DNA of 64,000 bases, taken from the NCBI GenBank assembly GCA_017554615.1, contig JAFZHY010000026.1:1-64000 (forward strand), read 5' to 3'. A program made the position numbers and the translations under genes. This document shows positions 6,863 to 51,750 of the stretch, in pieces (the first letter of the stretch is position 1; every line of letters starts with the position of its first letter). The stretch is from Clostridia bacterium. GTDB taxonomy: Bacteria; Bacillota; Clostridia; UMGS1840; HGM11507. Below the pieces are notes generated by a model. That model did not search any database. It saw only the letters and a program-made list of their open reading frames with translations, and was not told the DNA's origin.

Positions 6863-7128
6863 TTCTGTTATACCTCCCTTAAGATTATTAGGTACGACAG
6901 TAAAAACTAATAACTCCGCCGTGTGTTTCGCTCTCATCCATTTTAAAACCCGCTTTCGATTTAACAAGCGGGTAAGCATAGATAACGCGCAAAAAAGGCA
7001 TAGATTGCCTAATCGTTGCATGAGTTTATATAGTGCCTGCCGCCCGGTTTAAAATCGGACATACTCCATGGAAAAACCGGCTTTCGCCGCAACCTCCCAC
7101 TTCATCGCATAATATTTTTTACTAACCC
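6863..7128 (-). promoter_or_regulatory. Structured 5' leader of the S10 ribosomal protein operon
   Basis: About 260 nt separate the predicted promoter from rpsJ, and the region is more GC-rich than its surroundings. In the minus-strand transcript I see three stems. CCGGTTT (7080-7074) can pair with AAACCGG (7050-7044); a competing GGCGAAAGCC hairpin with a GAAA loop (about 7088-7079) shares its bases. ACCCGCTT (6973-6966) pairs with AAGCGGGT (6955-6948), followed by a short U run, so it could act as an attenuator. AGGCA/TGCCT (7010-6996) is a small third stem. Autoregulation by a ribosomal protein is plausible. The ligand is unknown. Confidence 0.55.
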
Positions 7129-16553: not shown

Positions 16554-16795
16554 GAATAATATTGAAACGTTTGTATTTAAGAAAGTAGGCTTATAAAAAG
16601 CATCAGAGAGAAAATGCCGTTGGCTGAAAGCATTTTTTGTATTTTTTTAAGTTGAAGTTCGCTTAAAGAGTTCTCCATAGGAAATGATGGGGCGTAAATT
16701 CTGCGTTAAAGAAGTAAGCGTCAATTTTTATTGAAAATTGGGTGGTACCGCGGGTTTAATATGCTCGTCCCTTTGTTGGGGCGGGTATTTTTTTA
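16554..16795 (+). ncRNA. T-box riboswitch leader of pheST
   Basis: The leader shows the T-box order. AGAGAG is followed by the stem I apical part (GCCGTTGGCTGAAAGC region). A TTC triplet at 16658-16660 sits at the specifier position and matches phenylalanine. The conserved antiterminator bulge GGTGGTACCGCGGG begins at 16741. A terminator follows, pairing about 16761-16771 with 16778-16788 plus seven Ts. Uncharged tRNA-Phe should stabilise the antiterminator and switch on synthetase expression. The family is well established; the specifier position is my reading. Confidence 0.93.
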
Positions 16796-26054: not shown

Positions 26055-26291
26055 GGAGATAGGTAAAAATGTTTGGAATGGACAAACTTAGCCAAAGTTT
26101 TACTTTGGGTTACCCGACGCTGTATGAGATACAGCGAGTGGCTAAGTTTGTTCATAGCAAAAAGTTTTCAATTCCAAAGATTTTTAAGTTTCTTAAAAAT
26201 CTTTACCTTTTTACAATTACCCTTATATATTATGAATATTTAAATATTTAATTTTATTTACTTTTTGCGTTCCAGACTTTTTTAACATCTC
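26055..26291. repeat. Long structured repeat downstream of ppdK (long form)
   Basis: This 237-bp non-coding segment is full of inverted repeats. A 15-bp stem joins 26080-26094 and 26139-26153, with an inner perfect 8-bp hairpin (CGCTGTAT/ATACAGCG, 26118-26136). Outside it TTTGGAAT (26072-26079) pairs with ATTCCAAA (26171-26178). A perfect 11-bp hairpin with a TTT loop fills 26178-26202. Both ends match a short element after upp (51631-51692): the ppdK-proximal end agrees at 32 of 37 bases. It looks like a dispersed family with a palindromic insertion in this copy. Two short frames across it are not credible genes. Confidence 0.75.
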
Positions 26292-26294
26292 CAA

Positions 26295-28925
26295 TTATTT
26301 TGAGTCTTTTAGGGCTGCCTGTGCTGCCGCAAGTCTTGCAATAGGCACTCTAAATGGTGAACATGACACATAGTCAAGACCGATTTTATGACAAAATTCA
26401 ACTGATACAGGGTCGCCACCGTGTTCACCGCAGATACCACAGTGAATTTCAGGCTTAGTTCCCTTTCCTAATTTAATTGTCATTTCCATAAGTTTACCAA
26501 CGCCTGTCTGGTCAAGTTTGGCAAACGGGTCATTTTCGTATATTTTTTTATCATAGTAAGCGTCTAAGAACTTACCTGCATCGTCTCTTGAGAAACCAAA
26601 GGTCATCTGAGTTAAATCGTTTGTACCGAAACAGAAGAAGTCTGCTTCTTTTGCGATTTCGTCTGCTGTAAGACACGCTCTTGGAATTTCAATCATTGTA
26701 CCCACTTCATAAGAAAGGTCAATTCCTGAATTTTTGATTTCTTCATCGGCAGTAGCAACAACAATATCTTTAACATATTTAAGTTCTTTAACTTCGCCTG
26801 TTAAAGGAATCATAATTTCAGGCTTAACTGCCCAATGAGGATTCTCTTTTTTAACATTTATTGCAGCACGGATAACTGCCTTTGTCTGCATTTTTGCAAT
26901 TTCAGGGTATGTTACACTAAGTCTGCAACCACGGTGCCCCATCATAGGGTTAAATTCGTGAAGGGAAGCAATAATTGCCTTTATATCTGAAACAGATTTA
27001 CCCTGTGCATCGGCAAGTGCCTTGATATCTGCTTCTTCAGTTGGAACAAACTCGTGTAAAGGCGGGTCTAAAAATCTTATTGTAACAGGGTTTCCTTTTA
27101 ACGCTTTATAAAGTTCTTCAAAATCGCCCTGCTGATAAGGAAGAATTTTTTCAAGTGAGCGTTCTCTTTCTTCCAAAGTATCTGCACAAATCATTTCTCG
27201 AAATGCTGCAATTCTGTCAGCCTCAAAGAACATATGCTCTGTACGGCAAAGACCGATACCTTCTGCACCAAGTTCAACTGCTTTTTTAGCATCATAAGGT
27301 GTGTCTGCATTTGTTCTTACCTTAAGTGTTCTTACTTCGTCTGCCCACTGCATAATAGTTTTAAATTCTCCAACTATTTCTGCGTCAACAGTAGGGATAA
27401 TACCATCATATATATTACCTGTTGAACCGTCTATTGAGATATAATCTCCCTCTTTATAAGTTTTTCCTGATAGAGTAAACTTTTTGTTTTCTTCATCCAT
27501 AATTATATCGCCGCAACCTGATACACAGCAAGTTCCCATACCACGGGCAACAACTGCAGCGTGAGATGTCATACCACCTCTTACAGTTAAGATACCCTGA
27601 GCCGCTTTCATACCGGTTATATCTTCAGGAGAAGTTTCAAGTCTTACCAATATAACCTTTTCGCCTTTATTATTCCAAATTTCAGCATCTTCTGCAGTAA
27701 ATACAACCTTACCACACGCAGCACCAGGAGATGCGCCCAAGCCTTTTCCCATAGGAGTTGCAGATTTTATTGCTTTTATATCAAACTGAGGGTGTAAAAG
27801 TGTATCAAGGTTTCTTGGGTCAATCATTGCAACAGCATCATTTTTATCTATCATTCCCTCTTCTACTAAATCACAGGCAATTTTAAGAGCCGCTTTTGCA
27901 GTTCTTTTACCGTTTCTTGTCTGAAGCATATATAATTTTCCTGCCTGAATGGTAAATTCCATATCCTGCATATCTCTGTAATGGTCTTCTAAAGTTTCGC
28001 AAACTATATTAAACTCTTTAAACGCTTCAGGGAATTTATCAGCCATTTCACAAATAGGCATAGGAGTTCTGACCCCTGCAACAACATCTTCCCCCTGAGC
28101 ATTAACTAAAAATTCGCCCATAAGACCTTTTTCGCCGGTAGCAGGGTCTCTTGTAAAGGCAACACCTGTTCCGCAGTCATCTCCCATATTACCAAATGCC
28201 ATCATCTGAACATTTACTGCTGTACCCCATGAATAAGGGATATCGTTATCACGACGGTAAACATTTGCTCTGTCATTATCCCATGAACGAAAAACTGCTT
28301 CAACAGCGCCCATAAGTTGTTCTTTAGGGTCGGACGGAAAATCTTTTCCGATTTTCTTTTTATATTCTTCTTTAAATTTACCTGCAAGGTCTTTTAAATC
28401 GTCGGCAGTAAGTTCAACGTCTAACAAAACACCTTTTTCTTCTTTCATTTTATCAATGAGTTCTTCAAAGTATTTCTTTCCGACTTCCATAACAACGTCA
28501 GAATACATCTGGATAAATCTTCTGTAACAGTCCCACGCCCAACGAGGATTACCGCTTTTTGAAGCCATAACTTCAACAACTTCTTCATTAAGCCCAAGAT
28601 TTAGAATAGTATCCATCATACCAGGCATAGATGCTCTTGCACCTGAACGAACAGAAACAAGTAAAGGGTTTTCCTTATCACCGAATTTCATTCCGGTAAT
28701 ACCCTCCATCTTGTCAATATATTCCATAATTTCTGCCTGTATCTCATTATTTATAACTCTACCGTCTTCATAATATTTAGTACACGCCTCGGTTGTAACT
28801 GTAAACCCTTGAGGTACAGGAAGACCGATTTTGGTCATTTCTGCAAGGTTAGCACCCTTTCCTCCCAAAAGTTCACGCATTGAAGCATCACCTTCGGAAA
28901 ACAAATAAACATATTTTTTTGCCAT
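26295..28925 (-). CDS. ppdK: Pyruvate, phosphate dikinase
   Basis: The 876-residue enzyme interconverts pyruvate, ATP and phosphate with PEP, AMP and pyrophosphate, and often serves glycolysis in anaerobes. The nucleotide-binding half is N-terminal. The swivelling domain carries the phosphorylated histidine in GGMTSHAAVVARGMG. The PEP barrel is C-terminal with the catalytic cysteine region HCGICGEHGGDP. The ATG at 28923-28925 (MAKKYVYLF) has AGGAGG upstream; the 13 codons open further upstream are excluded. It stands alone with its own promoter. Confidence 0.97.
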   Translation of the reverse strand: MAKKYVYLFSEGDASMRELLGGKGANLAEMTKIGLPVPQGFTVTTEACTKYYEDGRVINNEIQAEIMEYIDKMEGITGMKFGDKENPLLVSVRSGARASMPGMMDTILNLGLNEEVVEVMASKSGNPRWAWDCYRRFIQMYSDVVMEVGKKYFEELIDKMKEEKGVLLDVELTADDLKDLAGKFKEEYKKKIGKDFPSDPKEQLMGAVEAVFRSWDNDRANVYRRDNDIPYSWGTAVNVQMMAFGNMGDDCGTGVAFTRDPATGEKGLMGEFLVNAQGEDVVAGVRTPMPICEMADKFPEAFKEFNIVCETLEDHYRDMQDMEFTIQAGKLYMLQTRNGKRTAKAALKIACDLVEEGMIDKNDAVAMIDPRNLDTLLHPQFDIKAIKSATPMGKGLGASPGAACGKVVFTAEDAEIWNNKGEKVILVRLETSPEDITGMKAAQGILTVRGGMTSHAAVVARGMGTCCVSGCGDIIMDEENKKFTLSGKTYKEGDYISIDGSTGNIYDGIIPTVDAEIVGEFKTIMQWADEVRTLKVRTNADTPYDAKKAVELGAEGIGLCRTEHMFFEADRIAAFREMICADTLEERERSLEKILPYQQGDFEELYKALKGNPVTIRFLDPPLHEFVPTEEADIKALADAQGKSVSDIKAIIASLHEFNPMMGHRGCRLSVTYPEIAKMQTKAVIRAAINVKKENPHWAVKPEIMIPLTGEVKELKYVKDIVVATADEEIKNSGIDLSYEVGTMIEIPRACLTADEIAKEADFFCFGTNDLTQMTFGFSRDDAGKFLDAYYDKKIYENDPFAKLDQTGVGKLMEMTIKLGKGTKPEIHCGICGEHGGDPVSVEFCHKIGLDYVSCSPFRVPIARLAAAQAALKDSK

Positions 28926-28964
28926 AATATGTTTCCTCCTATGTTTAAAATCTAATATTTCCAT

Positions 28965-31774: not shown

Positions 31775-31806
31775 GCCAAGTGTGCTTTTTGTACACTTGG
31801 CAGTTT
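31775..31806 (+). terminator. Terminator of the CofE-like gene
   Basis: GCCAAGTGT (31775-31783) and ACACTTGGC (31793-31801) form a 9-bp stem followed by AGTTTTATT. The same stem sequence recurs in the terminator at 32693-32731. Confidence 0.75.
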
Positions 31807-31809
31807 TAT

Positions 31810-31971
31810 TCGCCTTAATGCGAGTGATATTTACTTTGTAAGTGATATTGCTTTGCAGTGATATTGACTTCGTCAGTTTACAGGCGGATAAAATATCACT
31901 AAAACCAAAGGTTTTAATATCACTTTTAGATTATTAAAAATATCACTCTGCATAAAATGCAGAATATCACT
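31810..31971. repeat. Palindromic array of AGTGATATT units
   Basis: Three direct copies of AGTGATATT (31823, 31841, 31857) are followed by four copies of its reverse complement AATATCACT (31892, 31916, 31939, 31963). Between units lie small perfect hairpins: TACTTTGTA, GCTTTGC, GACTTCGTC, AAAACC/GGTTTT (31901-31915) and CTGCAT/ATGCAG (31948-31962). The whole can fold into one long branched structure. It has no coding frame. It fills most of the gap before the HAD gene. It resembles intergenic palindromic repeats I recall from other gut Clostridia, but the role is unknown. Confidence 0.85.
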
Positions 31972-50998: not shown

Positions 50999-51628
50999 AT
51001 GGGTAAAGTTACTGTTATGGATCATCCTTTGATTATCCACAAAATGTCCCTTTTAAGAGATAAAAAAACTACAAGTAAAGAATTCAGAGAACTTGTTAAA
51101 GAAGTGGCAACTCTTATGTGCTACGAAACCACAAGAGACCTTCCACTTAAAGAAATAGAAATTGAAACACCTATCTGCACTGCTAAAACTAAGGTTATTT
51201 CAGGAAAAGCATTGGCACTTGTTCCAATTCTTCGTGCAGGGCTTGGAATGGTTGACGGTATGCTTACCCTTATCCCTGCTGCAAAAGTGGGCCATATCGG
51301 TTTATACAGAGACCCTGAAACTTTTAAACCTGTTGAATATTACTGCAAACTTCCTAATAACATTGAATTAAGAGATGTTATAGTGTTAGACCCTATGCTT
51401 GCAACAGGTGGTTCTGCCATAGATGCTATTTCACTTTTAAAAGAAAAAGGATGTTCAAACATTAAGTTTGTATGCTTATGTGCTGCTCCTGAAGGTATTG
51501 ATGCTCTGTCAAATGCTCATCCTGATGTTGATATATACTGTGGCGCTGTTGACGAAAAGTTAAACGACCATAAATATATAGTTCCCGGTTTAGGGGATGC
51601 AGGGGACAGAATATTTGGCACAAAATAG
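50999..51628 (+). CDS. upp: Uracil phosphoribosyltransferase
   Basis: The 209-residue salvage enzyme makes UMP from uracil and PRPP. It has [16 protein letters not shown] near residue 75, the PRPP loop [14 protein letters not shown] near residue 125 and the uracil-binding [13 protein letters not shown] at the end. rpiB-upp is a frequent pair, linking ribose-5-phosphate to PRPP use. It is followed directly by a short repeat and a terminator. Confidence 0.97.
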
Positions 51629-51630
51629 CA

Positions 51631-51692
51631 GTAGACGCTAAAAATGTCCGGAACGCAAAAAGTTAATAACTCCAAACATTTTATCTATCTAC
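51631..51692. repeat. Short form of the post-gene repeat, after upp
   Basis: Starting 3 bp after the upp stop, this 62-bp segment matches both ends of the element after ppdK (26055-26291). It agrees at 32 of 37 bases on the gene-proximal side (with GGAACGCAAAAAGT identical) and again over TCCAAACATTTT and CTATCT on the distal side. The roughly 185 bp of palindromes in the ppdK copy are missing here. In both places the element starts directly after a stop codon and precedes a terminator. Confidence 0.75.
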
Positions 51693-51709
51693 TAAATAAA
51701 TAAAAATTA

Positions 51710-51750
51710 AAGTCTGTTTAAATAGTTTTTTTAAACAGACTTATTTTTTT
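51710..51750 (+). terminator. Terminator of the upp transcript
   Basis: AAGTCTGTTTAAA (51710-51722) and TTTAAACAGACTT (51730-51742) form a perfect 13-bp stem followed by a run of seven Ts. Confidence 0.9.

What the first reader, a model, noticed from the sequence alone, without database searches (positions are those of the whole stretch)
51631..51692. Same element in short form after upp
The ends of the ppdK element are joined here without the 185-bp palindromic middle. 32 of 37 bases match on the gene-proximal side, and the distal TCCAAACATTTT...CTATCT also matches. Both copies directly follow a stop codon in the same orientation relative to the gene. This suggests either insertion of a palindromic module into a pre-existing 3' element, or precise loss of it here.
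Basis: seen in the sequence. Interest (0 to 1): 0.65.

Follow-up and report, generated by a model that had tools for sequence, protein, structure and literature searches.

The report
Decayed copy of stop-codon-linked palindromic repeat
The 64-base stretch after the upp gene is a shrunken copy of an apparently undescribed family of folded DNA repeats that sits, nearly always facing the same way, right behind stop codons of unrelated genes in many uncultured gut Clostridia; the sister species still has a full-length copy at the same spot.

Summary
In detail: window 51630-51693 carries both ends of the ppdK element (26292-26055, minus strand), far above chance. It is not limited to two loci. A covariance model finds 11, 53, 2, 44, 32, 29, 14 and 28 copies in eight of nine genomes of the order (one has none); a pattern scan finds the family in at least 34 Clostridia assemblies. 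Full copies are about 200-250 bp: outer stem P1, inner arms P2 and P3, usually followed by an intrinsic terminator. Of 97 sampled copies with an upstream gene, 92 lie on that gene's strand; 73 start within 17 nt of its stop codon. Covariation is strong (521 double-changed cells against 148 expected), but A-C mismatches are as common as G-U, unlike tRNAs of the same assemblies: arms look maintained at DNA level. At upp the sister species has a full element and seven more distant genomes an empty site; four short forms have four different junctions. So the middle was most likely lost here, not inserted. No Rfam, phage or plasmid match and no paper found. Best reading: a non-autonomous palindromic repeat with unusually strict sense-strand, stop-adjacent placement. 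Mover and function are not shown.

The parts
51630..51652 (+). left arm of outer stem P1 of the shortened upp copy
   Evidence: matches left ends of G000 copies E1-E11
51653..51670 (+). remnant of P2 5' strand (CGCAAAAAGTTAATAA) joined to right arm; deletion junction
   Evidence: P2 3' strand and P3 arm missing here, present in full copies
51671..51693 (+). right arm of P1 of the upp copy
   Evidence: pairs with left arm, outer AGTAGA/TCTACT
51711..51741 (+). hairpin with T tract behind the upp copy, intrinsic-terminator-like
   Evidence: sequence; coordinates; fold
50999..51628 (+). host gene upp
26055..26292 (-). full-length copy after ppdK
   Evidence: CM 152.5 bits, E 4.8e-31
26268..26292 (-). 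P1 left arm, ppdK copy
26260..26268 (-). P2 5' strand, ppdK copy
   Evidence: pair columns supported by covariation
26157..26165 (-). P2 3' strand, ppdK copy
26140..26150 (-). P3 5' strand, ppdK copy
26083..26093 (-). P3 3' strand, ppdK copy
26055..26080 (-). P1 right arm, ppdK copy
26295..28964 (-). host gene ppdK

Best explanation
The stretch after upp is an internally deleted copy of a multicopy, non-autonomous palindromic repeat. The intact unit is about 200-250 bp: P1 closes a three-way junction carrying P2 and P3, and an intrinsic terminator usually follows. Shown: copy number, sense-strand placement right behind stop codons, covarying arms, an occupied or empty upp site in related genomes, internal deletions that keep the outer parts of both P1 arms in the four reduced copies read, and copies in G001 that are near-identical from the left end through the terminator. 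Inferred: the upp copy descends from a full element present in the ancestor of the genus; the repeat spreads or is homogenised as DNA, by gene conversion or a recombinase acting on the folded strand, together with its terminator; it persists where it is transcribed behind a gene and does no harm; it decays by losing inner arms. Its effect on the message is probably none or mild 3'-end protection.
For: Family and copy number. Placement: 92 of 97 copies with an upstream gene on that gene's strand, tandem gaps 47 sense to 3 antisense, 73 within -14 to +17 nt of the stop; in G000 ten of 13 start 2-12 nt after the stop. Covariation: 521 double-changed cells against 148 +/- 10 shuffled and 61-131 for slid structures, 94.5% against 78% paired. 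DNA-level pairing: G-U 30 (counted as G-T), A-C 48 in helices 1-3 against 25 and 2 in tRNAs of the fetched loci (Fisher p 8e-7). Deletion at upp: full element in G001, empty in G002-G008; four different junctions. Four host genes compared between G000 and G001 (upp, rny, a dehydrogenase, a DegV-like gene) bear an element or its left end in both. Unit with terminator: near-identical G001 copies share sequence through ACAGCCCC and then diverge. Not phage or plasmid borne in those collections.
Against: No mover was found. Only one candidate family was sought genome-wide: Y1 transposases occur in 6 of 9 genomes but not in G000 or G008, and no element lies near them. No target-site duplication: left end and terminator arm resemble each other by genome, not by locus. 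New insertion was not seen; shared host genes and subfamily replacement at one site fit gene conversion of old copies as well. The G001 upp copy belongs to another subfamily, so ancestry at that site rests on position. Such strict sense placement would also be expected of a functional 3'UTR RNA.
Confidence: 0.66

Rival explanations
1. A functional structured 3'UTR RNA, for example a binding site for an RNA-binding protein or the source of 3'UTR-derived small RNAs, kept by selection behind a set of housekeeping genes; short forms are minimal or decaying versions.
For: Almost always sense and stop-adjacent, hence transcribed; conserved unpaired stretches in A2 such as GACC, TAYRAA and TTC (though part of that stretch was fixed by the search pattern); host genes shared between species; strong covariation.
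Against: No wobble excess; presence differs between species at upp and rny; near-identical amplification in G001; hosts are unrelated genes; one copy sits inside rnpB. Template switching can also keep RNA hairpins perfectly complementary (abstract of PMC8794818), so the wobble test does not exclude this.
Confidence: 0.22
2. One reading: the 64-bp form is the older 3' element and the palindromic middle is a module inserted into it elsewhere.
For: The short form still folds into a P1 hairpin on its own, and a second palindrome really is nested in some copies.
Against: P2 and P3 are standard parts across genomes; the sister species has the full form at upp; short copies have different junctions; no duplication flanks the middle in the copies read.
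Confidence: 0.05
3. A classical MITE moved by a DDE transposase through its terminal inverted repeats, landing anywhere and surviving behind genes.
For: Short, non-coding, terminal inverted repeats, many near-identical copies in one genome.
Against: Outer repeats vary by locus with compensation instead of being a fixed sequence; no target-site duplication seen; 47 to 3 sense bias in tandem gaps.
Confidence: 0.09
4. A recombination site recognised as a folded single strand, working like an integron attC site.
For: Structure conserved more than sequence, located right behind stop codons in gene orientation, unpaired bases in the stem; attC sites are known to be recognised by structure (PMC2727003).
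Against: Hosts are housekeeping genes, not cassette arrays; ends lack constant AAC/GTT boxes; longer than the 57-142 nt reported for attC; no integrase was searched for.
Confidence: 0.05

Closest known systems
MITE-like and ERIC/Correia/bcr-type intergenic repeats (known to me; MITEAba12 and enterobacterial RU repeats listed)
   Same: short, non-coding, palindromic, tens of copies, internally deleted forms, no transposase inside
   Different: ends covary by locus instead of being fixed; near-exclusive sense placement at the stop codon; three-way junction; often carries its own terminator
REP/REPIN elements with RAYT transposases (PMC3733652)
   Same: palindromic, many copies, next to coding regions; GTAG REPs can even supply a stop codon
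   Different: about 160-250 bp instead of 20-40 bp; no GTAG or CGTC tag; no Y1 gene near copies
Integron attC sites (PMC2727003)
   Same: structure conserved more than sequence, behind the stop codon in gene orientation
   Different: no constant AAC/GTT ends, no cassette array, longer
Rfam families in general
   Same: covarying secondary structure
   Different: no family matches

Membership tests
MITE (DDE-type) | constant terminal inverted repeats | tested here: not met
   Outer bases differ by locus with compensation
MITE (DDE-type) | target-site duplication | tested here: inconclusive
   None seen by eye; left end resembles terminator arm by genome, not locus; no closely matched empty site was available
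MITE (DDE-type) | autonomous relative with the same ends | not tested
   Not searched systematically
REP/REPIN | GTAG or CGTC tag at one end, 20-40 bp unit | tested here: not met
   Copies have neither; definition
REP/REPIN | associated RAYT (Y1) gene | tested here: not met
   Y1 in 6 of 9 genomes, absent from G000 and G008; no element within the Y1 loci read
integron attC | AAC and GTT in R'' and R' boxes at the ends | tested here: not met
   Ends are of GGGGATGTAAAAA and CCTATCCCC type
integron attC | cassette array and IntI integrase | not tested
   Hosts are dispersed housekeeping genes; integrase not searched
known structured RNA (Rfam 15) | match to a covariance model | tested here: not met
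   No relevant match in window, G000 copies or eight named loci
RNA-level structure | G-U well above A-C at covarying pairs | tested here: not met
   30 vs 48 in helices 1-3; tRNA control 25 vs 2

The most novel reading that the evidence does not exclude
A DNA-structure-recognised element that is targeted to the gap between stop codon and terminator in transcription orientation, moving or converting as a unit with its terminator: a way of placing mobile DNA by gene 3' ends not known to me in bacteria.
Probability: 0.15. Interest if true: 0.85.

Novelty: new variant of a known kind. Interest (0 to 1): 0.55.

Why it matters
An order-wide, apparently undescribed repeat family with near-total sense orientation at stop codons gives a testable case of how selfish or domesticated DNA settles in 3' UTRs, and of covariation that carries no RNA-type wobble signal although it would pass for a structured RNA in an automatic screen.

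Tried and rejected
Rfam at gathering and E-value thresholds: no family. Target-site duplication of the terminator arm: similarity is by genome, not locus. RAYT/Y1 partner: patchy distribution, no element beside the genes. Phage and plasmid origin: no match in those collections; 3 of 2.9 million viral contigs hit the pattern. The ORF listing around the 80 named loci showed one 513-aa ORF overlapping the motif in L161; it was not read further, so an autonomous copy is not excluded. The pattern used to fetch the named loci fixes 27 positions, so conservation there in A2 is partly ascertainment. A bracket-based tRNA parse gave nothing and was replaced; a script on the Y1 loci stopped after the first.

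Full report
Observation. The upp gene (50999-51628) ends at TAG 51626-51628, and 51630-51693 holds AGTAGACGCTAAAAATGTCCGGAACGCAAAAAGTTAATAACTCCAAACATTTTATCTATCTACT. It matches the left and right ends of the element behind ppdK (minus strand 26292-26055); 32 of 37 proximal bases agree, against at most 24 in composition shuffles, and a 25-mer consensus hits the window only at these two places. Host genes were confirmed with NCBIfam.

Family. In the own genome (G000, 1.28 Mb) the same ends recur at a dozen or so places, from the 57-bp form at C2 to forms above 500 bp. Full copies fold into an outer stem P1 and two inner arms P2 and P3, with a terminator hairpin close behind most of them. Two of the longer ones carry an extra roughly 270-bp palindrome inside the P3 side. 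A covariance model from 42 named copies (A2, R1) counts 11, 53, 0, 2, 44, 32, 29, 14 and 28 copies in G000-G008. It does not match Rfam, phages or plasmids.

Placement. For 102 model hits read with their surroundings, the upstream gene lies on the element's strand in 92 and on the other in 5; in gaps between tandem genes the split is 47 to 3; 73 start between -14 and +17 nt of the stop codon (genes here are long ORFs from a simple caller). The named loci show the same. One exception is instructive: in G003 a copy sits in the P12 hairpin of an otherwise intact RNase P RNA.

Loss, not insertion, at upp. In the upp 3' ends of nine genomes, G001 has a full element of another subfamily at the same place, and G002-G008 have only a simple terminator. 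The reduced copies in G000 at upp, C2, C13 and C10 have four different junctions, and all four keep the outer parts of both arms of P1. Three other host genes compared between G000 and G001 (rny, a DegV-like gene, a dehydrogenase) also bear an element or its left end in both. I infer that the genus ancestor had elements at these sites and that the upp copy lost its inner arms. Because the G001 copy is of a different subfamily, this rests on position rather than on sequence of that copy; replacement by gene conversion would explain the difference.

DNA or RNA. Covariation is strong: 521 cells changed on both sides against 148 +/- 10 in shuffles and 61-131 with slid partners (the alignment was fitted to the model, which leans towards its structure). 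In helices 1-3 G-U cells number 30 and A-C cells 48, while tRNAs found in the fetched loci give 25 and 2 (Fisher p 8e-7, sequences not independent). So the arms are kept Watson-Crick perfect, as expected of palindromes maintained in DNA. Template switching can do that for RNA hairpins as well (abstract of PMC8794818), so RNA function is weakened, not excluded. Helix 4 varies on one side only and is not supported as a pair.

Mechanism. Left ends resemble terminator arms by genome, not by locus, so I see no target-site duplication. Y1 transposases do not track the element. What is shown is multiplication in one genome and conserved placement; how it moves is not. I favour a non-autonomous palindromic repeat spread or homogenised as DNA together with its terminator, tolerated only behind genes.

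Limits. MAG assemblies may hide copies at contig ends. The A2 motif was partly fixed by the fetch pattern. Few closely related empty sites were available.

Noticed in passing
G000 C17:11940-12446 and C12:26865-27367 (L026, L028); G001 L067, L077: A second palindrome of about 270 bp is nested inside some copies; G001 also has a 30-bp hairpin variant (TTAGCCGTCGG...CCGACGGCTAA) in the P2 loop.
   Followed up: partly
L287 (G003 C37): A family copy lies inside the P12 hairpin of RNase P RNA, which is otherwise intact.
   Followed up: yes
G000 C13:12500-12620 (L038): At an rpoD-like gene, about 30 bp of the gene end (AAAAARTTAAAAGATTTCCTTAATT) is repeated after a left-end fragment of the element.
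   Followed up: no
L150, L172, L144: In these named copies the right arm of P1 itself ends like a terminator 3' arm.
   Followed up: no
L274 (G000) and L329 (G005): Host genes 89% identical in protein across two families of the order both carry an element; possible gene transfer.
   Followed up: no
L161, around 2543: A 513-aa ORF overlaps the motif position; not read.
   Followed up: no
window 16561-16775, 31801-31869, 7037-7113: Rfam hits: T-box leader, Gut-1 RNA, S10-Clostridia leader.
   Followed up: no
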